From a virus, in IMG/VR virus record IMGVR_UViG_3300034102_001827, positions 1 to 24,964 of that record: a stretch of 24,964 nucleotides of DNA. The stretch is one strand, 5' to 3'. Below are positions 1,569 to 23,865 of this stretch, piece after piece; positions within the stretch are counted from its first letter, which is position 1; each line of letters opens with the position of its first letter. The notes under the pieces are model-generated. The model did not search any database. It saw only the letters and a program-made list of their open reading frames with translations, and was not told the DNA's origin. Made by a program: the position numbers and the translations under genes.

Positions 1569-2054
1569 ATGGCAGTATTAGACGCTAACGAAATAATGTT
1601 TACAGCATTTGAACCCAAAGTTCAGAATCGCTTTATCATGTATCTTGATGGTATCCCATCATATTTGATTAAAGCAGCTTCTGCTCCTGGATTTGAAGCT
1701 GGTGAGATTATTTTAGACCACATCAACGTTTACCGTAAAGTTAAAGGTAAAGTTAGGTGGAATGATATGACTTTAAGCTTATACGATCCTGTAACTCCAT
1801 CTGGCGCACAAGCCGTAATGGAATGGGCTCGTTTAGCACATGAATCCGTAACCGGTCGTGACGGATATTCCGATTTTTACAAGAAAGATTTAACATTAGA
1901 TATTTTAGGACCAGTAGGTGATGTAGTAGGTGAGTGGATTATTAAAGGTGCCTATTGCAAAACAGCCACTTTCGGTGAATACGATTGGGCTAACGACGCA
2001 GCAATTAACTTATCAGTAACAATCGCTATGGATTATTGTGTATTGAATTTCTAG
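1569..2054 (+). CDS. Tail tube protein
   Basis: A 161-residue protein of the T4 gp19-like tail tube family, the subunit that stacks as hexameric rings to form the inner tube of the contractile tail. The N-terminal segment QNRFIMYLDGIPSYLIKAAS, the strand RVKGKVRWNDMTLSLYDPV-like region and the C-terminal GAYCKTATFGEYDWAND followed by a beta strand are typical of gp19-type tubes. The length matches the family (about 160 residues). It directly follows the sheath gene and is followed by a strong terminator, so sheath and tube may end one late transcript and be made at high level. The ATG has an A-rich leader and no Shine-Dalgarno sequence. Confidence 0.93.
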   Translation: MAVLDANEIMFTAFEPKVQNRFIMYLDGIPSYLIKAASAPGFEAGEIILDHINVYRKVKGKVRWNDMTLSLYDPVTPSGAQAVMEWARLAHESVTGRDGYSDFYKKDLTLDILGPVGDVVGEWIIKGAYCKTATFGEYDWANDAAINLSVTIAMDYCVLNF

Positions 2055-2224: not shown

Positions 2225-2983
2225 ATGGCAGAATTAAAAATCCCAACAGAAACAGTTACATTACCATCAAAAGGCTTACTGTATCCTGAGACATCTCCAC
2301 TCGCTAAAGGAGAAATTGAAATGAAGTATATGACCGCTAAAGAAGAAGACATTCTTACTAATAGCAACTATATCAAAAACGGAACCGTAATTGATAAGCT
2401 ACTTCAAGCACTTATTATCACCCCTATTGATTACAATGAATTATTAGTAGGCGATAAAAATGCAATCCTGATTGCAGCTCGTGTATTAGGTTACGGTAAA
2501 GATTATACCTTTAAATATACAACTAAAAACGGACAAGAAGCAGAAGCAACTGTTGATTTATCTAAATTAGAAGATAAAGTGGTAGACGAATCACTATTCA
2601 AACCAGGAGCAAATGAATTTTCATTTACACTCCCTCATTCAGGCAACACTGTTACTTTTAAATTATTGACACACGGTGAAGAGCAAAAGATTGAAGCTGA
2701 AATTAAAGGTTTACAAAAAGTAAATCCAAATTCATCATCCGAAGTTACTACACGTTTAAAATATATTATCACATCTGTAGAAGGTAAGCGTGATCAAAAA
2801 GATATTCGTGAATTTATAGACATATACCTTATTGCTAAAGATGCAAGAGCACTACGCGAATATTACAGCAGAATATCCCCCGATATTAACATGATGTATA
2901 AACCTGAAAGTGAAGATTATACAGGGGAGGGTATAAACGTTCCTATTTCTCTTAACTTTTTTTGGCCTGACTCCGGAGTATAG
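2225..2983 (+). CDS. T4 gp26-like tail/baseplate assembly protein (short, unshifted product)
   Basis: A 252-residue protein resembling the T4 baseplate hub assembly family (gp26 type). The N-terminal segment VTLPSKGLLYPETSPLAKGE, followed by MKYMTAKEEDILTN, is the usual opening of that family, and a helical C-terminal half with KYIITSVEGKRD and a FIDIYLIAKDARALREYY segment follows. It sits between the tube and tape measure genes, exactly where other contractile and long-tailed phages carry the tail assembly chaperone pair made by frameshifting (G/GT in lambda, E/E' in P2). The unshifted frame ends eight residues after a 7-T run with a nondescript tail (WPDSGV), while the +1 frame continues as well-formed protein. 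I infer a chaperone-like role for this product and its extension; the gp26 resemblance itself is fairly clear. Confidence 0.82.
   Translation: MAELKIPTETVTLPSKGLLYPETSPLAKGEIEMKYMTAKEEDILTNSNYIKNGTVIDKLLQALIITPIDYNELLVGDKNAILIAARVLGYGKDYTFKYTTKNGQEAEATVDLSKLEDKVVDESLFKPGANEFSFTLPHSGNTVTFKLLTHGEEQKIEAEIKGLQKVNPNSSSEVTTRLKYIITSVEGKRDQKDIREFIDIYLIAKDARALREYYSRISPDINMMYKPESEDYTGEGINVPISLNFFWPDSGV
2957..2963 (+). other. Probable ribosomal frameshift site (T7 run)
   Basis: Seven T's are read in frame as AAC TTT TTT TGG. A +1 slip (or -2 slip, which adds one Phe) after the second TTT moves ribosomes into the frame reading GGC CTG ACT CCG GAG TAT, which stays open to 3242. A -1 slip would hit TGA within three codons and is excluded. 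The alternative frame is open only from 2937, so the shift must occur between 2937 and the TAG at 2981-2983; the T-run is the only obvious slippery stretch there. A sequencing error of one T in the run would give the same appearance. Confidence 0.6.
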
Positions 2984-3242
2984 ATTACATGTATTTAGAC
3001 AAATACATGAGATAGTATTTCATGGTGGTGGTGGATATGATTGGAATACTATATACAATATGCCTATCTGGTTGCGTCGCTTCACATTCGAAACATTAAG
3101 AGAACATTTTGAAAAACAAAATGAAGAAGCAGAAAAGCAACAAAATATGCTTAAAAACAATGGCAAAAGTAAAGGTGATATATCACGACCAAACATAGCT
3201 CCAAAACAACCGACATACACAACAAAGGCGCCTAGAAAATAG
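2964..3242 (+). CDS. Frameshift-encoded C-terminal extension of the gp26-like protein
   Basis: This frame gives 92 residues after the T-run, reading LTPEYRLHVFRQIHEIVFHG, then GGGYDWNTIYNMPIWLRRF and a charged coiled-coil tail. It looks like real protein from its first codon: aromatic and amphipathic segments, a Gly turn and a YNMPIWLRRF helix. Yet it has no ATG, GTG or TTG in frame before the ATG at 3060, so about 32 well-formed codons (2964-3059) can be made only by frameshifting from the upstream gene. The predicted fusion is about 338 residues. In other phages the shifted chaperone binds the tape measure protein, whose gene follows here. An independent 60-residue protein starting at 3060 is possible but would cut the segment in half, so I prefer the fusion. 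Confidence 0.68.
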   Translation, partial: GLTPEYRLHVFRQIHEIVFHGGGGYDWNTIYNMPIWLRRFTFETLREHFEKQNEEAEKQQNMLKNNGKSKGDISRPNIAPKQPTYTTKAPRK

Positions 3243-3277: not shown

Positions 3278-5707
3278 ATGGCCGATACATTAAGTACACA
3301 AGATTTAGCAGAATTAAAACAACTGTATAAAGACCTACAGAATATCCAAATTCCGGATATGGCTGATTTTATAAAAGCTTTAGGAGGAATAGATGCTGCT
3401 CGTAAGAATTTAATGCAAATGAGAAAAGAATTTGCAAACATAAATTCTGATGTAAGTTACTTTGCTGAATCTTTAACTAAAGTATTAATGGAATTAAAAA
3501 ACCAAAATAATGCTTTAGGCAAAACCAAATCAGCATATTCTTCTCTTAGTAGTTTAGCTAATAAACTTAAATATGATCAAGACGGTATTTCTAGATTAAG
3601 TGAGAAGGAATTAAAAAAGATGTCTGAAAAGGTAAAACAAAACAGAGCATCTTTAGAATTAGCTAAACAAATAAATGAAGAGAGATTAAAAGATGTAAAT
3701 AAACAATTATATTCTTCCACACAACTTGATCCAAAAAGACTATCAGCATTAAGAAAAGAAAAAAAAGCATTAGAAGATAATACTAGTGAAGTTAATCAGT
3801 TTTTAAAGGATTACAGAAACGGCTATGTTGCTTTAGAAGGAACTATTAATAAAAGAATACAAAAGGAAAAAGAATTACAAGAAGCTATAGGCCTTACTGG
3901 TAATGCTCTTAAACTTTTAAATAAAATCCCAGGTCTAAGTGGAGCTCTAGATACAGAGCAAGCCTTAGAGGACATGAGAGAGTTTGCTGAAGAACTTCAG
4001 GCAAAGGGGGAAGACGTAAATACTTTTAGCAATAAACTTAAAATAGCAGGAAAAGGTTTATCGACTGCTTTTGGTGGGTTAAAAAAATCATTAACAGATC
4101 CAGTAGCAGTACTTAGTTTTTTTGTAAGTAAAGCATTAGAAGCAAATGCAGAATCTGTAAAATTAGGAAAATCCTTAGGATATGGTACTGATAGAGCAAA
4201 TGCTTTTAGAGAAAATCTAGTAGGAATTGAAAGTGCATCTGCTAATATAAATGTTACTACTGCAAATCTAGTTGAAGCATATGGGGAGTTAGCAGCAGAA
4301 ACTGGTCTAGCATATGAATTCACGGCAGACCAACTCACTACTCAAATTAAATTAACTAAACAAGTTGGGTTAACAGCAGATCAAGCAGCCCAAGTACAAC
4401 GTTTTGCGGTTTTAAACAATAAAACATCAGAAGAAACATATAAATCCTTTTTAAAAGGAATAACAGCAGCAAGAAACCAACTTAAAGTTGGGATTGATTT
4501 TAAAGCAACTTTAGCTGAAGCTTCTAAAGTATCAGGACAACTAGCAGCACAACTAGGTAATAACCCAGAATTAATTAGTAGAGCTGTTGTAAGTGCTAAA
4601 GCACTTGGTATGACTTTAGAACAAGTGGCTAAAGCAGGAAGTACTCTTCTTGATTTTGGCTCATCTATAAGTAGTGAATTAGAAGCTGAATTGTTAACTG
4701 GTAAACAAATTAATTTAGAAAGAGCTAGAGCAGCAGCATTAGCGGGTGATCAAATAGTATTAGCTGAAGAATTAGCTAAAAACATGGGTACCGCTGCTGA
4801 ATTTACCAAATTAAATAAACTCCAACAAGACTCATTAGCCAAATCCATTGGGATGAGCTCAGATGAGTTAGCTGAAACTTTAAGAAAAAGAGAAGAAGCA
4901 ATTGCTAGTGGTAAATCATTAGCACAAATAACTGAAGAAGAAGCAGCTCAGGCACTTGAAAGACAAAATATACAGGACCAATTTGGTCAAAGTATACTTA
5001 AACTTCAAAGCTTAATTGGTAACCTACTATCAGGTCCTTTAGGAATGATGTTAGATATATTAGTAAAAATACTCAACGTTGCTAATTTAATATTACAACC
5101 TTTTACTTTATTAGCTAATTTTATTAAAGAATCAACAGCTGCTTCTTTAACATTTTTAGGTGTATTAGGAGCAATATATGCTATAAAAAATAGAACTTTT
5201 TTAATAGATAAAGCTCAATTAGCTATTGAAGGTATTAAAAAAATATACAACACCACTCAAATAGGTCAATTAGGTATAATAGAATCTATTAAATCAAGAG
5301 GTTTTTTCAAAACCTTAGCTGAAGCAGCAATGACTGCTTTTAAATCTGTCGCCAGTATGCCTTTTATAGGTCCTGTATTAGGAGCAGCAGCCGCTGCTAG
5401 CGCTGTGGGATTAGGTATGAGTTTATTTTCTAAAGGAGATGACGTTGTATCACCAGGATATGGTAAACGAGTATTATCCACTCCTGAAGGATCTATAGCT
5501 TTAAATAATAAAGATACTATAGTTGCTGGTACAGATTTAGGTGGTGGTGGTGGATCAATGCCTTCAATTGATCTTACACCAATGATAGCAGCAATTAACG
5601 AAGTTAGAGCAGCTGTTGATAGGTTATATAGCAAAGATCAATCCATCAATATGGATGGTAAAAAAGTAGGTACTACACTAGTACAAGGCTCATACAAAGT
5701 AGCATAA
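3278..5707 (+). CDS. Tail tape measure protein
   Basis: At 809 residues this is the tape measure protein that fills the tail tube and sets tail length; the usual rule of roughly 0.15 nm per residue suggests a tail near 120 nm. The first 240 residues are Lys/Glu-rich and helical, with coiled-coil character. The middle is Ala-rich helix. Hydrophobic stretches near residues 570-635 (LLSGPLGMMLDILVKILNVA and the following FTLLANF region) and 680-715 (MPFIGPVLGAAAAASAVGLG) could insert in the host membrane during ejection. The C-terminal region has GKRVLSTPEGSIALNNKD then a Gly run and a short amphipathic end, a pattern typical of phage tape measures. It follows the assembly chaperone gene, as expected. 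Confidence 0.92.
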   Translation: MADTLSTQDLAELKQLYKDLQNIQIPDMADFIKALGGIDAARKNLMQMRKEFANINSDVSYFAESLTKVLMELKNQNNALGKTKSAYSSLSSLANKLKYDQDGISRLSEKELKKMSEKVKQNRASLELAKQINEERLKDVNKQLYSSTQLDPKRLSALRKEKKALEDNTSEVNQFLKDYRNGYVALEGTINKRIQKEKELQEAIGLTGNALKLLNKIPGLSGALDTEQALEDMREFAEELQAKGEDVNTFSNKLKIAGKGLSTAFGGLKKSLTDPVAVLSFFVSKALEANAESVKLGKSLGYGTDRANAFRENLVGIESASANINVTTANLVEAYGELAAETGLAYEFTADQLTTQIKLTKQVGLTADQAAQVQRFAVLNNKTSEETYKSFLKGITAARNQLKVGIDFKATLAEASKVSGQLAAQLGNNPELISRAVVSAKALGMTLEQVAKAGSTLLDFGSSISSELEAELLTGKQINLERARAAALAGDQIVLAEELAKNMGTAAEFTKLNKLQQDSLAKSIGMSSDELAETLRKREEAIASGKSLAQITEEEAAQALERQNIQDQFGQSILKLQSLIGNLLSGPLGMMLDILVKILNVANLILQPFTLLANFIKESTAASLTFLGVLGAIYAIKNRTFLIDKAQLAIEGIKKIYNTTQIGQLGIIESIKSRGFFKTLAEAAMTAFKSVASMPFIGPVLGAAAAASAVGLGMSLFSKGDDVVSPGYGKRVLSTPEGSIALNNKDTIVAGTDLGGGGGSMPSIDLTPMIAAINEVRAAVDRLYSKDQSINMDGKKVGTTLVQGSYKVA

Positions 5708-8665: not shown

Positions 8666-11515
8666 ATGTCTATATTCAAAGATACGTTTAAAGAAGGAGT
8701 TAAAAATCAATTAAAGACTAGACAAAAAGCCATATTTGAACGCACCCCCGATGCTATCCAGTACTTTAATGCTCGTAACTCTTGGATTAGAATGACATCT
8801 AGTGTTAATGTAGGAAAAGACGATGGTAGTTTAATACCCGGAGTATCTACTTTAGCTAAAAGTTATGTTTTATTAGGAGGAACGCTATATAATGGTAAAT
8901 TAAGATCAGGAGTAGGAACAGATAATAAAGCTTACAGCTTAAATTCTACTACAGTAAATCCTGATGGTACTATAAAACAAGAAAAAAATAGACTAGGAAT
9001 ACGACCAATGCCTGGTATAACATCTATTGATATAAAATCAAAATCAGCTTATGGTTCATTAAGAGAAGTAGTTGTAAATTTTAATTGCTGGGATATTAGG
9101 CAATTAGAAGAATTAGAACTACTATACATGCGTCCTGGCTATAGTGTATTAGTAGAGTGGGGTTGGGCTCCTTATCTTGATAATAATGGAAAATTACAAA
9201 ATAATATCTCATTTACCGATGATGTTTTAAATGGAGGAGTACCTAAAGAACAAATATGGAAAAATATATTTACAAAAGCCTCTAAAGATGGTAATTATGA
9301 TGCTCACTATGGTATCATAAAAAATTATAGCTGGTCTGCTAGACCTGATGGGGGGTATGATTGTACTTCTACTATTATTTCTATAGGTGAAGTTCTTGAA
9401 TCTTTAAAAGTAAATTATACTCCTGCTGATACTAATATACCAACTAATGGTCTTTTTAATACATTACCCACTCCTTTTAAAAAAGATTCAAATGTACAAA
9501 AATCATATTCACAAAATAAAATAGCAGGAATATGTAATGAATTATATCTTACTTTATTAGAAAAAGGAATAGATAACTTTGAAGAATTACAATTTAGTGG
9601 TTGGACATTCTTTAGATTTAATGTAGATATAAGTAATTCTCCAAATACAGATAGTGACTTTGATGATGAAGCTCAAATATATATCTTATTAAAAGATTTT
9701 ATTGATATTCTTAATAAGCATGTAATATTACATGATCAAAATGGGAAACCAATACCTGAGGTATCAGTAAATGAAGGGGATCATATGGGAAAAGGAGAAA
9801 ATAAACCTTTATTATGTTTAGCTCATCCATTACAATTATCTATAGATCCATCTGTTTGCTTAATTAAAAACAACGCTTGGCTTACTCCTTCAAATTTAGG
9901 ATTTGAAGAAGGATTTACTGATGATTTTGATACTCTAACTGATATATTAAACGGATTAAAAACTAGTTATTGGTATAATAATAATTTTACTTATGATGAT
10001 AAAGCTCCTACTCCTCAACTGGGAGTTATAGGAAATATATATGTTAATTTAGGCTATATATATTCATTAGTTAATAATAAAAACCTAGAATCTCAAGATA
10101 AAAAAGAAAAAAACGATATTATATTATTTGATTTTCTTAAAAACCTAATGTCTGGTATCTCTAATGCAACCGGGAATGTAGCCACTTTTGATATCTTCTC
10201 AGACCCTATTGATTCAGCTGCTAGAATTATAGATGTAAATTATACTGATGATCAGAAAAGACAAGAAGCATATGATAATGCTTTTATGTTTGAATTACAA
10301 AATACTAAATCTGTAATTCGAAACTATAAATTTGAGTCTCAAATATTCCCAGATCAAACAACTATTGTTGCCATAGGAGCACAGGCTAAAGGAGGTGCTT
10401 TAGGAGCGGATGTTAATACATTAATTGACTTTAATCAGAATCTATTTGATAGAATTATTCCTAAAAAAGAAGCCCCCGATACTCCTTCAAACACAGATCC
10501 TATAAAAGAACTTGAGGAAAAAGTTAAAAATCTAAAAGAAAATATTAACATTATTGTTAGTTTTATCAATGAGATTGATCCTGCTTGGTATAGTTTTACA
10601 GGTACTGGAAATTATGATACAAGTAATGCTAGCAAATACAATAATGCTTTAAAAGATTTAATTAACTTTTTTAAGACATTTATAAAAAACGATAATAAAA
10701 ATAGAGCAATTATTCCTACTAAACTATCTCTTGAAATGGATGGTATTGGAGGAATGGTAATAGGAAATTTATTTAGAATCCCTAATGAATTATTACCTAG
10801 AGGATATAGAGGTGGTGGTGCTGGACCTGCTAAAATAGCATATACTGTTAATGGACTAGGGCATTCACTTCAAGGTAATGATTGGGTAACTAATGTTGAT
10901 TCTCAATTTATAATTTTAGATGAACCTAGAGGAGGTATATCTTTACTAGAAATGAACGATATTAAAATTATTATTGAAGCTGCCTCTGAAAATACTGTAG
11001 CAAATGCTGTTAAAAAGATAGGAAATATAAAAGCAGGAGGTGCTACTAAAACAATAAATGGAGTAGTAAGAAAAAATGGAGATATAGAAGATCTATTAGT
11101 ACCTATAAAACCAAATCTATACTCTCTACACTACAGCAGTGTAAATCAAAGTGATGGAAAAAGAATACGCTTACAAGCAGAGGCAATGCAAAATCTAGAA
11201 GCTCTATTAACCGATGCCTTTAATAATAAAATATATATTAAAGTAAATTCAGCTTATAGAACTAGAGAAGACCAAGAAAGAATCAAAGCGGATTCAGTAA
11301 GAACAAGAATACCAGCTGCTACTCCTGGAACTTCAAATCATGGTTTTGGTTTAGCAGTAGATTTAGCTAATGCTAGTGGGGTACGAATTAATCCTAATTT
11401 AACTCCTAAAGAATGGAAATGGATTCAGGAAAATAAAGGTAAGTATGGATTTGAAAACATTTTTGGTGAAAAATGGAATACTAGTGAATCTCACCATTAT
11501 AACTTTATAAAATAA
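8666..11515 (+). CDS. Baseplate hub protein fused to VanY-type D,D-peptidase
   Basis: A 949-residue protein with a long structural part and a C-terminal enzyme. Residues about 110-250 (FNCWDIRQLEELELLYMRPG, then VLVEWGWAPYL and a GIIKNYSWSARPDGGYDCTS region) resemble hub proteins of contractile tails that cap the tube. Residues about 820-949 form a zinc D-Ala-D-Ala carboxypeptidase (VanY/LAS family): SAYRTREDQ at 862, SNHGFGLAVD with zinc ligands His892 and Asp899, and ESHHYNF with catalytic Glu941 and ligand His944. All catalytic positions are present, so I infer an active peptidoglycan peptidase on the puncturing tip that opens the host wall, the job done by the lysozyme domain of T4 gp5. 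Neighbours are the LysM-like wedge gene and an unknown gene two bases after it. Confidence 0.88.
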   Translation: MSIFKDTFKEGVKNQLKTRQKAIFERTPDAIQYFNARNSWIRMTSSVNVGKDDGSLIPGVSTLAKSYVLLGGTLYNGKLRSGVGTDNKAYSLNSTTVNPDGTIKQEKNRLGIRPMPGITSIDIKSKSAYGSLREVVVNFNCWDIRQLEELELLYMRPGYSVLVEWGWAPYLDNNGKLQNNISFTDDVLNGGVPKEQIWKNIFTKASKDGNYDAHYGIIKNYSWSARPDGGYDCTSTIISIGEVLESLKVNYTPADTNIPTNGLFNTLPTPFKKDSNVQKSYSQNKIAGICNELYLTLLEKGIDNFEELQFSGWTFFRFNVDISNSPNTDSDFDDEAQIYILLKDFIDILNKHVILHDQNGKPIPEVSVNEGDHMGKGENKPLLCLAHPLQLSIDPSVCLIKNNAWLTPSNLGFEEGFTDDFDTLTDILNGLKTSYWYNNNFTYDDKAPTPQLGVIGNIYVNLGYIYSLVNNKNLESQDKKEKNDIILFDFLKNLMSGISNATGNVATFDIFSDPIDSAARIIDVNYTDDQKRQEAYDNAFMFELQNTKSVIRNYKFESQIFPDQTTIVAIGAQAKGGALGADVNTLIDFNQNLFDRIIPKKEAPDTPSNTDPIKELEEKVKNLKENINIIVSFINEIDPAWYSFTGTGNYDTSNASKYNNALKDLINFFKTFIKNDNKNRAIIPTKLSLEMDGIGGMVIGNLFRIPNELLPRGYRGGGAGPAKIAYTVNGLGHSLQGNDWVTNVDSQFIILDEPRGGISLLEMNDIKIIIEAASENTVANAVKKIGNIKAGGATKTINGVVRKNGDIEDLLVPIKPNLYSLHYSSVNQSDGKRIRLQAEAMQNLEALLTDAFNNKIYIKVNSAYRTREDQERIKADSVRTRIPAATPGTSNHGFGLAVDLANASGVRINPNLTPKEWKWIQENKGKYGFENIFGEKWNTSESHHYNFIK

Positions 11516-18862: not shown

Positions 18863-20713
18863 ATGGATGTAACGCAAGGTATCCTTAGCGAGATTACTAC
18901 TTACATGAAGTACAGTAAGTATGTACCTGAGAAAAAAAGGAGAGAAACATGGGAAGAATTAGTTACGAGAAATAAAGAAATGCATCAAACTAAATTTCCA
19001 CAACTAAAAGATGAAATCGAAGAAATCTATAAACTGGTATACGCTAAGAAGGTATTGCCTTCAATGCGCAGCTTGCAATTCGCTGGTAAGCCCATTGAGC
19101 TTAATAATGCTCGTATATTTAATTGCTCTTTTCTTCCTCTTGATGATTGGAGAGCATTCAGTGAAATAATGTTCCTCCTCCTTTCAGGATGTGGAGTAGG
19201 ATATAGTGTTCAAAACCACCATATTGATCAATTACCAGAAATCAAAGTACCAACTAAACACAAACGTTATTTGGTAGGTGATAGCATTGAAGGATGGGCT
19301 GATGCCGTTCGTATGCTTTGTAAAGCATATTTTCAAGGCGCTCCGCTCCCAACATTTGATTTCAGAGATATCAGAGCCAAAGGCGCCCAGTTAATTACTG
19401 TAGGTGGTAAAGCACCTGGCCCTGAGCCATTGAAAGAATGCCTATTTAATCTCCAGAAGATATTTGATCGTAAGAAAAACGGAGAGAAAATGACTTCAGT
19501 AGAAGTACATGATATGGCTTGTCACATTGCTGATGCTGTATTGTCTGGAGGTATTCGCCGTGCTGCTCTTATCTCATTGTTCGATTTGGATGATGAAGAT
19601 ATGTTAACTTGTAAGTTTGGTAATTGGTGGGAAGAAAACCCACAACGTGGTCGTGCTAATAATTCTGCCGTTGTATTACGTCACAAGATCACTGAAGAAG
19701 AATTCTTCAAATTATGGAAGAAAATTGAATTAAGCGGCAGTGGTGAACCCGGTATTTACTTTAGCAATGACAAAGATTGGGGAACTAACCCATGTTGTGA
19801 GATTGCTTTACGTTCTTTCCAATTCTGTAACTTGTGTGAAGTAAACGTTTCAAACGTTGAATCACAAGAAGACCTAAACGAACGTGTTAAAGCAGGAGCA
19901 TTTATTGGTACATTACAAGCAGCATACACTAACTTCCATTATCTAAGAGATGTATGGCAGAAAACAACTGAAAAAGATGCTCTATTGGGTGTTGGAATGA
20001 CAGGTATTGGATCAGGAGCTATTTTAAAATATGATTTGAAAAAAGCAGCTGATTTATCTAAAGAAGAAAACGCTCGTGTTGCTGAAATAATTGGAGTTAA
20101 TAAAGCAGCTCGTGTAACAACAGTTAAACCATCAGGTACTAGTTCACTTGTATTAGGAACATCATCTGGTATCCACGCTTGGCACAATGACTATTATATT
20201 CGCCGTATTCGCGTAGGTAAAAACGAAGCAATCTATAATTACCTTGCAGTTAACCACCCAGAATTAGTAGAAGATGATTTCTTCAAACCAACAATTCAAG
20301 CTGTAATTTCAGTACCACAAGCAGCACCAGAAGGTTCTATTTTAAGAACTGAAAACGTAATTGATATGCTTGAGCGCACTAAATTATTCAATCTTGAATG
20401 GGTAAGAAAAGGTCATCGTAAAGGAGCTAATACAAACAATGTATCAGCTACAGTATCAGTTCAAGAAAATGAATGGGAACAAGTAGGTAATTGGATGTGG
20501 GAAAATAAAGAAACATTTAACGGATTATCAGTATTGCCTTATTTTGGAGGTAGCTACATGCAAGCTCCATTTGAAGATATTACCAAAGAACAATTCGATG
20601 AAATGGCTCAACATCTTCATAATATTGATTTATCTCAGATTGTTGAATTTAGCGATGATACAGCATTAATGGATCAAGCAGCATGCGCTGGAGGTGCTTG
20701 TGAGATAGTATAA
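18863..20713 (+). CDS. nrdJ: Class II (B12-dependent) ribonucleotide triphosphate reductase
   Basis: A 616-residue reductase resembling the monomeric Lactobacillus leichmannii enzyme, which reduces ribonucleoside triphosphates with a radical from adenosylcobalamin. Active-site parts are in order: FNCSFLP (equivalent of Cys119), LLSGCGVGYSV, the loop SGGIRRAALISLF, NPCCE (radical cysteine equivalent to Cys408, with Asn and Glu) and FCNLCEVN (equivalent of Cys419, exactly 11 residues later). KPSGTSSLVLGTSSGIH is the phosphate-binding region. The last residues CAGGACE have the C-x4-C redox pair that exchanges with thioredoxin. It is about 120 residues shorter than the L. leichmannii protein, so the allosteric insertion is reduced. 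It would make dNTPs without oxygen or a second subunit, but needs host cobalamin, as no B12 gene is seen here. Confidence 0.93.
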   Translation: MDVTQGILSEITTYMKYSKYVPEKKRRETWEELVTRNKEMHQTKFPQLKDEIEEIYKLVYAKKVLPSMRSLQFAGKPIELNNARIFNCSFLPLDDWRAFSEIMFLLLSGCGVGYSVQNHHIDQLPEIKVPTKHKRYLVGDSIEGWADAVRMLCKAYFQGAPLPTFDFRDIRAKGAQLITVGGKAPGPEPLKECLFNLQKIFDRKKNGEKMTSVEVHDMACHIADAVLSGGIRRAALISLFDLDDEDMLTCKFGNWWEENPQRGRANNSAVVLRHKITEEEFFKLWKKIELSGSGEPGIYFSNDKDWGTNPCCEIALRSFQFCNLCEVNVSNVESQEDLNERVKAGAFIGTLQAAYTNFHYLRDVWQKTTEKDALLGVGMTGIGSGAILKYDLKKAADLSKEENARVAEIIGVNKAARVTTVKPSGTSSLVLGTSSGIHAWHNDYYIRRIRVGKNEAIYNYLAVNHPELVEDDFFKPTIQAVISVPQAAPEGSILRTENVIDMLERTKLFNLEWVRKGHRKGANTNNVSATVSVQENEWEQVGNWMWENKETFNGLSVLPYFGGSYMQAPFEDITKEQFDEMAQHLHNIDLSQIVEFSDDTALMDQAACAGGACEIV

Positions 20714-21293: not shown

Positions 21294-21758
21294 ATGTTTC
21301 AGTCAACAAAACTATTCGATGGTTTCAGTTGTGTATTCCGTCAATGGAAAGCAGAAGGAACACACTGCCGTTTCCTCCACGGTTATGGAGTATCATTCAG
21401 AGTATGGTTCGAAGGTGAACTAGATGAACGTAATTGGGTTTGGGATTTTGGAGGTATGAAACGTGCTAATGGTACTATTGATGGTAAGAATCCTAAAGAA
21501 TGGATGGACTATATGTTCGATCATACTACAATCATTGCTGAAGATGATCCGGGAATGGGTGGTTTTAAAACAATGGATCAATTAGGTATAATTCAACTTA
21601 GAATTATTCCTGCTGTTGGGGCAGAGCAATTTGCAAAGTATATCTTTGAAAAATTAAATACATTTGTTCAAGAAGAAACAAATGGTAGAGTCAAGATAGC
21701 GAGAGTAGAATTTATGGAACACGCCAAAAATACCGCTATCTATGAAGAAAAAAGATGA
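21294..21758 (+). CDS. queD: 6-carboxytetrahydropterin synthase-like (QueD), variant metal site
   Basis: A 154-residue T-fold enzyme that in the deazaguanine pathway converts dihydroneopterin triphosphate to 6-carboxytetrahydropterin. Recognisable parts are CRFLHGYGVSF (catalytic Cys25, His29), WVWDFGGMK (Asp51), FDHTTIIAEDDP (Asp76, His77), PAVGAEQFAKYIF and the pterin-anchoring Glu142 in EFMEHAKN. Two of the three usual zinc histidines are not at their normal places: the FSCVFRQW segment has Phe15 where FxAAH has His, and HGY has Tyr31 in place of the second His of HGH. An extra His24 next to Cys25 might compensate. Family assignment is good; the exact reaction is likely but not proved because of the changed metal site. 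It opens the modification gene group and overlaps the next gene by 17 bases. Confidence 0.82.
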   Translation: MFQSTKLFDGFSCVFRQWKAEGTHCRFLHGYGVSFRVWFEGELDERNWVWDFGGMKRANGTIDGKNPKEWMDYMFDHTTIIAEDDPGMGGFKTMDQLGIIQLRIIPAVGAEQFAKYIFEKLNTFVQEETNGRVKIARVEFMEHAKNTAIYEEKR

Positions 21759-23022: not shown

Positions 23023-23865
23023 ATGAGAAAACAAGCAGTATTATCACTGTCAGGTGGAATGGATTCATCTACTCTCCTACTTCACCTCCTTGCAAACGAT
23101 TACGATGTAACATCATTGTCGTTTGATTATGGTCAAAAACACCGAGTAGAACTTGAGCGAGCACAATCATTAGTCGCTTATGTAAATGAAAAAAATTGCG
23201 GTTGTGGTGGCAAACCAATCTATGGCAATGTAAAACATCAAGTGATTAAGCTAGATGGATTGTCTCAACTACTTAATTCAGCCTTGGTTGAAGGTGGTAA
23301 TGATGTTCCTGAAGGACATTACGAACAAGACAACATGAAAGATACTGTTGTTCCTAATCGTAATAAAATCTTCGCTTCATTGATTCAAGCAGTAGCACTT
23401 TCGATTGCAACTAAACCTATTACAGATGATTGTAGTGTAGGTCAAGAAGTAGCTATTGCGATGGGAATCCATGCTGGTGATCATGCTATCTATCCTGATT
23501 GTAGACAAGAATTCCGTGATGCTGACTTTGAAGCATTTAAAGTTGGAAATTGGGATTCTAATTTAGTATCACATTATACTCCATATCTTGAGTTAAATAA
23601 ATTTGATATTCTTAAAGATGGAGAGTTGGCTTGTCAAAAACTTGGTCTTAACTTTGATGAAGTCTATAAGCGTACAAATACATCTTATAAACCATTTCCA
23701 TCAGGAAACAGTGATTATAAGTCAGCGGCATCAGTAGAGCGTATTGAAGCATTTATTAAACTAGGACGTCCGGATCCGGTAGAATATGAAGATGAAACAG
23801 GACCAGTAACATGGGAAGTAGCTAAATCCCATGTAGAAAAAGTATTAGCTGAACATATTTCGTAA
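23023..23865 (+). CDS. queC: 7-cyano-7-deazaguanine synthase-like (QueC), zinc cysteines lost
   Basis: A 280-residue PP-loop ATPase of the QueC family, which turns carboxydeazaguanine (CDG) into the amide ADG and then into preQ0 using ATP and ammonia. The PP-loop is LSLSGGMDSST (residues 7-17), followed by SFDYGQKHRVELERA, VVPNRNKIFASLIQAVALSI, GIHAGDHAIYPDCR and the C-terminal DPVEYED. In ordinary QueC a four-cysteine zinc site sits near the end; here those places are Ser221, Asp231, Ser234 and Ser237, in NTSYKP and DYKSAASVER, with the usual spacing kept. A short insertion, KNCGCGGKP (about residues 56-64), adds cysteines elsewhere. The enzyme is longer than most QueC proteins (about 220-240). 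Loss of zinc may change stability or make ADG the end product; that is speculation. Confidence 0.85.
   Translation: MRKQAVLSLSGGMDSSTLLLHLLANDYDVTSLSFDYGQKHRVELERAQSLVAYVNEKNCGCGGKPIYGNVKHQVIKLDGLSQLLNSALVEGGNDVPEGHYEQDNMKDTVVPNRNKIFASLIQAVALSIATKPITDDCSVGQEVAIAMGIHAGDHAIYPDCRQEFRDADFEAFKVGNWDSNLVSHYTPYLELNKFDILKDGELACQKLGLNFDEVYKRTNTSYKPFPSGNSDYKSAASVERIEAFIKLGRPDPVEYEDETGPVTWEVAKSHVEKVLAEHIS

What the first reader, a model, noticed from the sequence alone, without database searches (positions are those of the whole stretch)
2937..3242. Probable programmed +1 (or -2) frameshift making a long tail assembly chaperone
Seen: the gp26-like gene ends at 2983, but the +1 frame is open from 2937 to 3242 and reads as orderly protein from about 2964, with no start codon before 3060. 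A 7-T run (2957-2963) lies at the junction; a -1 slip would stop at once. Known: genes between tube and tape measure in lambda- and P2-like phages make short and shifted chaperones. Inference: this phage uses the same trick through a T4 gp26-family protein and a +1/-2 slip, which is less common than -1.
Basis: partly seen in the sequence, partly recalled or inferred. Interest (0 to 1): 0.75.

Follow-up and report, generated by a model that had tools for sequence, protein, structure and literature searches.

The report
+1 frameshift makes phage tail chaperone
This uncultured contractile-tailed phage appears to make a short and a long tail-assembly helper from one gene by having some ribosomes skip one base, an already known trick, here in the rarer +1 direction and preceded by a strongly conserved, apparently undescribed RNA hairpin whose loop carries GGAGG.

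Summary
Real and conserved. The gp26-family gene (2225-2983) and a +1-frame ORF (2964-3242) form a tail-assembly-chaperone pair (TAC-N / TAC-NC) between tail tube and tape measure. All 80 closest viral relatives keep the +1 overlap. In an independent scan, 120/120 contigs with AACTTTTTTTGGCCTGA have gp26 upstream and 119 the extension; 78/80 of the TTTCTTT variant do too. No in-frame fusion was found. The extension is under purifying selection in the +1 frame (median dN/dS 0.17). Slip core: YTT TGG CCT GA, the P-site Phe/Leu tRNA re-pairing on UUU. The TTTCTTT variant argues against polymerase slippage or a miscounted T-run. The extension is homologous to cyanophage gp51, which matches the C-terminus of T4 gp51; T4 carries separate genes 26 and 51. 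T4-like chaperones made by frameshifting, and T4's two-gene arrangement, are already published (Vladimirov 2022), so the kind is known. New as far as I can see: the +1 direction with this site in Bacteroidota-type phages, and an upstream hairpin (2917-2936) with a GGAGG loop. Its stem pairs are the three strongest covarying column pairs in 130 nt. No Rfam match; its effect on frameshifting is inferred, not shown.

The parts
2225..2983 (+). TAC-N: gp26-family tail assembly chaperone, short (frame 0) product, 252 aa, ends NFFWPDSGV
   Evidence: PF12322 T4_baseplate E 4.2e-7; PHROG150 'baseplate hub' E 1.6e-13; AlphaFold model pLDDT 91 whose best solved matches are YqbN (3klu) Z 5.2 and HK97 tail assembly chaperone (2ob9) Z 4.5
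2957..2970 (+). Shift site TTT TTT TGG CCT GA: P-site TTT 2960-2962, A-site TGG 2963-2965; +1 re-pairing on TTT 2961-2963, next codon GGC 2964
   Evidence: YTT TGG CCT in all 258 unique gp26 contexts collected with that motif: TTT TTT 170, TTT CTT 86, CTT TTT 2; all 80 best relatives found by protein have it; RM378 keeps TTT TTT TGG, Flavobacterium phage immuto TTT CTT TGG
2964..3242 (+). TAC-C: +1-frame extension GLTPEYR...KAPRK (92 aa), related to cyanophage gp51 and, through it, to the C-terminus of T4 gp51
   Evidence: purifying selection in the +1 frame; hhalign to cyanophage gp51 extensions E 5e-7, those to T4 gp51 C-terminus E 2e-7; predicted helical hairpin, mean pLDDT 76
2225..3242 (+). 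TAC-NC: predicted frameshift fusion of 338 aa (junction ...ISLNFF|GLTPEYR...)
   Evidence: translation with a +1 step at 2963; matches 99% of its length in Flavobacterium phage immuto in two pieces; the protein itself has not been observed
2917..2936 (+). Conserved RNA hairpin: 5' arm TTATAC 2917-2922, loop AGGGGAGG 2923-2930 (GGAGG 2926-2930), 3' arm GTATAA 2931-2936; 23 nt between its end and the P-site codon of the shift
   Evidence: covariation: 88% of cells paired against at most 50% in slid registers, score 0.741 against at most 0.217; top three covarying column pairs in 130 nt and 22 of 25 tree-mapped double changes pair-preserving at one pair; covariance model scores 72.8 bits in the window, which is among its own training sequences; no Rfam match
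1569..2054 (+). tail tube protein (gp19-like), directly upstream
   Evidence: PHROG4542 tail tube E 1.4e-19; PF06841 gp19 E 9.7e-4, below its cut-off
3278..5707 (+). tail tape measure protein, directly downstream
   Evidence: PHROG2854 tail length tape measure E 7.5e-4; position and 809-aa length

Best explanation
The gene makes two tail-assembly chaperones from one start. Most ribosomes stop at 2983 and give the short form (TAC-N, gp26-like). A minority, with Phe-tRNA (Leu-tRNA in TTTCTTT relatives) in the P site on YUU and the Trp codon UGG waiting in the A site, slip one base forward onto UUU, read GGC, and continue to 3242, giving the long form (TAC-NC). By analogy with lambda gpG/gpGT, the N part would coat the tape measure protein and the C part recruit tail-tube subunits (inferred). 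In T4 the same two products come from separate genes, 26 and 51. A conserved hairpin with a GGAGG loop just upstream probably stimulates the shift. Its existence is shown by covariation; its role is inferred from its place and nearly fixed spacing.
For: Frame relation kept in 80/80 best relatives and in 119/120 and 78/80 pattern-sampled contigs, with no in-frame fusion among 22 six-T matches (the three gp51-like ones read CTT TTT TGG and are also +1). Slip core YTT TGG CCT in 258 unique contexts. Extension under purifying selection in the +1 frame. In several relatives a stop codon lies directly before ACT TTT TTT GGC in the +1 frame, so no upstream start is possible (L022, L028, L035). Homology: gp26 family; T4 gp26 against gp51 N-domain E 5e-17; PF12322 hits both T4 genes; extension to cyanophage gp51 E 5e-7 and that to T4 gp51 C-terminus E 2e-7. 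Other phages shift at the same Phe-Phe: +1 in SP-15, RM378, LIS04, GXN1, phiXF1; -1 at T TTT TTY in P-SSM2, Syn9, KVP40, HTVC008M, phiM12, XacN1, RAS14. Solved tail assembly chaperones are the best fold matches. Hairpin.
Against: No peptide, ribosome-profiling or reporter data; efficiency unknown. The direct profile match of the extension to the T4 gp51 C-terminus is weak (E 0.0015); the link runs through cyanophages. The fold match to HK97 and YqbN chaperones is only Z 4.5-5.2 and Foldseek E >= 1. The GGAGG lies 29 nt from the P-site codon, unlike 3 nt in prfB, and Bacteroidia ribosomes occlude the anti-SD (PMC9976891), so how the loop would act is unclear. Part of the sampled relatives lack the hairpin in this register (115 of 258).
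Confidence: 0.9

Rival explanations
1. The +1-frame product is reached by a -2 ribosomal slip (as in phage Mu) rather than +1; the long protein would carry one extra residue (NFFF-GLT).
For: In TTT TTT TGG the P-site Phe-tRNA re-pairs on UUU after -2 too; -2 is known for the phage Mu chaperone (PMC5009743).
Against: Distant members with TTC TTT CGT (GXN1) or TTC TTT CCC TAA (phiXF1) allow a perfect +1 onto UUC but a mismatched -2 onto UCU. TTT CTT TGG relatives resemble the prfB-type +1 site.
Confidence: 0.07
2. RNA polymerase slips on the T7 run and makes a minority of mRNAs with six U's, which are translated straight through.
For: A homopolymer run lies exactly at the junction.
Against: 86 of 258 unique contexts have TTTCTTT, with no run longer than three T, and keep the same overlap; 7 T's is short for efficient slippage (general knowledge).
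Confidence: 0.02
3. The downstream ORF is a separate small gene with its own start (ATG 3060 or CTG 2967).
For: ATG 3060 opens the mechanically called ORF; database records annotate such ORFs in Mel-JY01 and immuto; CTG 2967 is invariant in the close relatives.
Against: The conserved, selected segment begins at GLTPEYR, 32 codons before ATG 3060. The Met is a Phe in immuto (YEFPIW). The window has no standard start before it, and three relatives have a stop right before the slip. The GGAGG is about 36 nt from the CTG. The CTG is also fixed by overlap with frame-0 Pro-Asp.
Confidence: 0.04
4. Sequencing error or a decayed gene: the true sequence has six T's and one fused gene.
For: Homopolymer runs are error-prone.
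Against: The same relation in hundreds of independent contigs from many metagenomes, including sites without the run, and in sequenced isolates such as immuto and RM378.
Confidence: 0.01

Closest known systems
T4-like phage tail assembly chaperones (T4 gp26 = TAC-N, gp51 = TAC-NC; Vladimirov, Gautam & Davidson 2022, Virology 566:9-15)
   Same: Same protein family and the same two products, in tail morphogenesis; frameshifting reported in several T4-like groups (cited in PMC10885494 and PMC12846349; abstract recalled from memory, paper not held).
   Different: T4 uses two genes. The T4-like shift signals described are poly-T -1 sites (and my); here the shift is +1 at YTT TGG CCT GA and is preceded by a GGAGG-loop hairpin.
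Phage lambda gpG/gpGT (-1, ~30:1) and the siphophage/P2/Mu G-T family
   Same: Overlapping frames between tail tube and tape measure, short major and long minor chaperone.
   Different: No sequence relation shown here; opposite shift direction; no lambda-type -1 heptamer.
prfB (RF2) +1 frameshift, in Flavobacterium AGGAGG UAU CUU UGA C (PMC8710568)
   Same: P-site CUU re-pairing on UUU (TTTCTTT relatives), presumed slow A-site codon, SD-like GGAGG upstream.
   Different: A-site is the sense codon UGG, not a stop; GGAGG is 29 nt, not 3 nt, from the P-site codon and sits in a hairpin loop; no autoregulation logic.
HSTV-2 (haloarchaeal myovirus) chaperone, very likely +1 (PMC5009743)
   Same: +1 shift for a tail chaperone in a contractile-tailed virus.
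   Different: Not compared at sequence level here.

Membership tests
Frameshifted tail assembly chaperone (TAC-N/TAC-NC) | Two overlapping frames between tail tube and tape measure genes | tested here: met
   tube 1569-2054, pair 2225-3242, tape measure 3278-5707; same order in immuto
Frameshifted tail assembly chaperone (TAC-N/TAC-NC) | Conserved slippery site at the end of the first frame and a conserved, selected downstream frame | tested here: met
Frameshifted tail assembly chaperone (TAC-N/TAC-NC) | Both products made, long form minor | not testable with these tools
   needs mass spectrometry or reporter assays
Frameshifted tail assembly chaperone (TAC-N/TAC-NC) | Binds the tape measure and tail-tube proteins and is absent from the virion | not testable with these tools
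   needs binding assays and virion proteomics
T4 gp26/gp51 family (PF12322, PHROG150) | Sequence homology of the N part | tested here: met
   PF12322 30.3 bits over cut-off 24.5; PHROG150 E 1.6e-13; hhalign to T4 gp26 family E 6.5e-8 with the FF ends aligned
T4 gp26/gp51 family (PF12322, PHROG150) | Extension homologous to the gp51 C-terminus | tested here: met
   to cyanophage gp51 E 5e-7, which matches T4 gp51 C-terminus E 2e-7; direct match weak, E 0.0015
Tail assembly chaperone fold (HK97 chaperone, YqbN) | Shared fold | tested here: inconclusive
   best two of 999 compared chains are 3klu (YqbN, Z 5.2) and 2ob9 (HK97 tail assembly chaperone, Z 4.5), but Z is low
lambda-type -1 frameshift | Extension in the -1 frame | tested here: not met
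   the -1 frame stops at 2968-2970; the extension is in +1
prfB-type +1 frameshift | P-site YUU can re-pair on UUU | tested here: met
prfB-type +1 frameshift | SD-like element 3 nt from the slip codon and a stop codon in the A site | tested here: not met
   GGAGG 2926-2930 lies 29 nt before P-site codon 2960; the A site is TGG

The most novel reading that the evidence does not exclude
A previously undescribed recoding signal: an mRNA hairpin displaying a GGAGG loop just behind the ribosome stimulates +1 frameshifting at YUU UGG in phages of Bacteroidota. Bacteroidota ribosomes normally hide their anti-Shine-Dalgarno, so the loop may catch the freed 16S tail, or the refolding hairpin may pull the mRNA forward.
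Probability: 0.5. Interest if true: 0.75.

Novelty: new variant of a known kind. Interest (0 to 1): 0.58.

Why it matters
It extends the frameshifted chaperone of T4-type tails to a large uncultured group of Bacteroidota phages, with the opposite shift direction to the T4-like cyanophages. Homologous proteins are thus joined at the same Phe-Phe by -1, by +1, or by gene duplication (T4, apparently Campylobacter phage CP81). That makes a natural series for asking how shift direction evolves while the product stays the same. The covarying GGAGG-loop hairpin offers a directly testable 5' stimulator in bacteria whose ribosomes are said not to use Shine-Dalgarno pairing. Practically, named phage records split or omit the second half of this gene, and annotation should be corrected.

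Tried and rejected
Polymerase slippage, sequencing error and an independent start were rejected on relatives. The six-T pattern, looked for as an in-frame fusion, gave 22 matches, none with gp26 in the fused frame; three (L274, L283, L284) turned out to be gp26 genes with CTT TTT TGG, also +1. A deep alignment (A1) had no stretch conserved enough for a collection scan. A first hhalign of gp26 against gp51 was contaminated by cross-hits and was repeated clean. A conserved 3' structure was looked for in the column-pair ranking: no convincing pairing covariation downstream of the site. Rfam has nothing here. Foldseek on the PDB gave nothing under E 0.001. An AUU/GUU-type internal start 8 nt after the GGAGG was considered and rejected because that codon varies freely. 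The Vladimirov 2022 paper is not held.

Full report
OBSERVATION. The window is an IMG/VR virus record of 24,964 bases. The gp26-family gene starts at ATG 2225 and ends at TAG 2983. Its last codons are AAC TTT TTT TGG CCT GAC TCC GGA GTA TAG. The +1 frame is open from 2937 to 3242 with no ATG, GTG or TTG before 3060.

CONSERVATION. A scan of IMG/VR with the gp26 protein gave 419 related stretches. I read the 80 best: all have the same +1 overlap and an extension of the GLTPEYR...YNMPIWLRR type. In three of them (L022, L028, L035) a stop codon in the +1 frame lies directly before ACT TTT TTT GGC, so no upstream start could serve the extension. I then scanned by DNA pattern alone. Of 120 contigs with AACTTTTTTTGGCCTGA, 120 have gp26 upstream and 119 the extension in +1; of 80 sites with AACTTTCTTTGGCCTGA, 78 have both. 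A six-T pattern, which would mark a plain fused gene, gave 22 matches and no fused gp26 gene. Three of those (L274, L283, L284) are gp26 genes reading CTT TTT TGG, again +1. In 258 unique contexts collected with the motif, the core is (T/C)TT TGG CCT: TTT TTT 170, TTT CTT 86, CTT TTT 2. Trp is otherwise almost absent from these genes: one TGG in the upstream part of 153 genes. The extension is under purifying selection in the +1 frame, median dN/dS 0.17, against 1.27 and 2.57 in the other frames.

WHAT THE PROTEIN IS. The N part matches PF12322 and PHROG150. PF12322 hits both T4 gp26 and T4 gp51. Clean profile comparison of T4 gp26 and gp51 families gives E 5e-17 over gp26 8-208 and gp51 7-203, so gp51 is a gp26-like domain plus about 46 further residues. 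Cyanophage gp51 was reported to lack the first ~200 residues (PMC3037559). The junction DNA shows why: in P-SSM2, Syn9, KVP40, HTVC008M and phiM12 the short gp51 is the -1 frame following gp26 at T TTT TTC or T TTT TTT. The window's extension matches those cyanophage-type extensions (E 5e-7), which match the T4 gp51 C-terminus (E 2e-7); the direct match is weak (E 0.0015). The 0-frame product folds confidently (pLDDT 91). Among 999 PDB chains compared, only five score Z >= 2, led by YqbN (3klu, Z 5.2) and the HK97 tail assembly chaperone (2ob9, Z 4.5). These Z values are low, so this is support, not proof. BFVD matches include the SP-15 baseplate hub subunit (E 4e-18) and other gp26-type proteins.

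BREADTH. In isolated phages the same Phe-Phe (Phe-Leu in immuto) is followed by the extension in +1: immuto (TTT CTT TGG), Mel-JY01 and RM378 (TTT TTT TGG), SP-15 (TTT TTT CAC), LIS04 (TTT TTT AGT), GXN1 (TTC TTT CGT), phiXF1 (TTC TTT CCC TAA); and in -1: XacN1, RAS14 and the metagenomic LR756511. T4 and apparently Campylobacter phage CP81 have two unshifted genes instead. Database records annotate the second part as a separate hypothetical gene or omit it.

MECHANISM. TTC TTT C.. sites allow a perfect +1 onto UUC but not -2. TTT CTT TGG resembles the prfB site CUU U. [quoted passage not shown] -2 remains possible in the window itself. Hosts are most likely Bacteroidota: related contigs sit in Winogradskyella, Flavobacteriales and Sphingobacteriales bins (one in a Woesearchaeota bin), and immuto was isolated on Flavobacterium.

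THE HAIRPIN. Upstream of the site, window 2917-2936 reads TTATAC AGGGGAGG GTATAA. Across relatives the stem changes freely but in pairs (TATA/TATA, TATG/CATA, GACG/CGTC, GGTG/CATC, GATG/CATC) around a constant GGAGG loop. In 64 diverse sequences 88% of cells pair, against at most 50% when the partner is slid by 1-3 columns; covariation score 0.741 against at most 0.217; 95 double-change cells against at most 19. RNAalifold independently predicts the same six pairs. Among all column pairs of the 130-nt region the three with the highest covariation are stem pairs, and on a gp26 tree 22 of 25 double changes at -36/-25 and 13 of 15 at -37/-24 preserve pairing; slid controls give 0 to 3. The stem pairs that covary most each join a third codon position to a first codon position, so protein constraint does not explain them. 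GGAGG occurs in 86% of contexts between -46 and -22, against about 0.02% per position elsewhere in the gene, and the hairpin core and GGAGG at -31 occur together (141 contexts have both, of 143 with the core and 153 with the GGAGG). The Glu codon there is GAG in 169 of 258 contexts although GAG is only 13% of Glu codons upstream. No Rfam family matches. The element sits at nearly fixed distance from the slip site, which suggests a 5' stimulator. How it would work is open: GGAGG is 29 nt from the P-site codon, too far for prfB-like tension, and Bacteroidia ribosomes occlude the anti-SD (PMC9976891), although their prfB shift does use AGGAGG (PMC8710568).

WHAT IS KNOWN. The 2016 recoding review says the G-T frameshift is conserved in long-tailed phages except T4 and that -1, -2 and +1 all occur (PMC5009743). 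Vladimirov et al. 2022 then identified the T4-like chaperones. The paper is not held; its content is taken from the PRFect paper, the Adele paper and my memory of its abstract: frameshifting in several T4-like groups, separate genes 26 and 51 in T4. So the finding belongs to a known kind. I found no report of the +1 group or of the hairpin, but my library lacks most subscription papers.

VERDICT. Observation confirmed, interpretation supported, kind known. The new elements are the +1 direction with YTT TGG CCT GA in this phage group and the GGAGG-loop hairpin.

Noticed in passing
L082, L083, L085, L086, L089, L090, L093 (named phages): Records of immuto, Mel-JY01, SP-15, RM378, LIS04, GXN1 and phiXF1 annotate the chaperone's second half as a separate hypothetical gene or not at all.
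   Followed up: partly
L138, L139, L140, L141, L143: Cyanophage, Pelagibacter, KVP40 and phiM12 'short gp51' are the -1 frame after gp26 at T TTT TTY.
   Followed up: yes
window 8666-11515: A 949-aa baseplate-region protein carries a C-terminal VanY/M15 D-Ala-D-Ala carboxypeptidase domain (PF02557 E 8.5e-14).
   Followed up: no
window 21294-21758 and 23023-23865: 6-pyruvoyl-tetrahydropterin synthase-like (PTPS, possibly QueD) and QueC genes suggest a 7-deazaguanine pathway, perhaps for DNA modification.
   Followed up: no
window 18863-20713: Ribonucleotide reductase large subunit with a match to the B12-dependent (class II) insertion domain.
   Followed up: no
contexts such as L145, L197, L210 (upstream of the slip site, TTTTTCCCGACGGGAGCGAC type): A subgroup lacks the GGAGG hairpin but has other small inverted repeats in the same place.
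   Followed up: no
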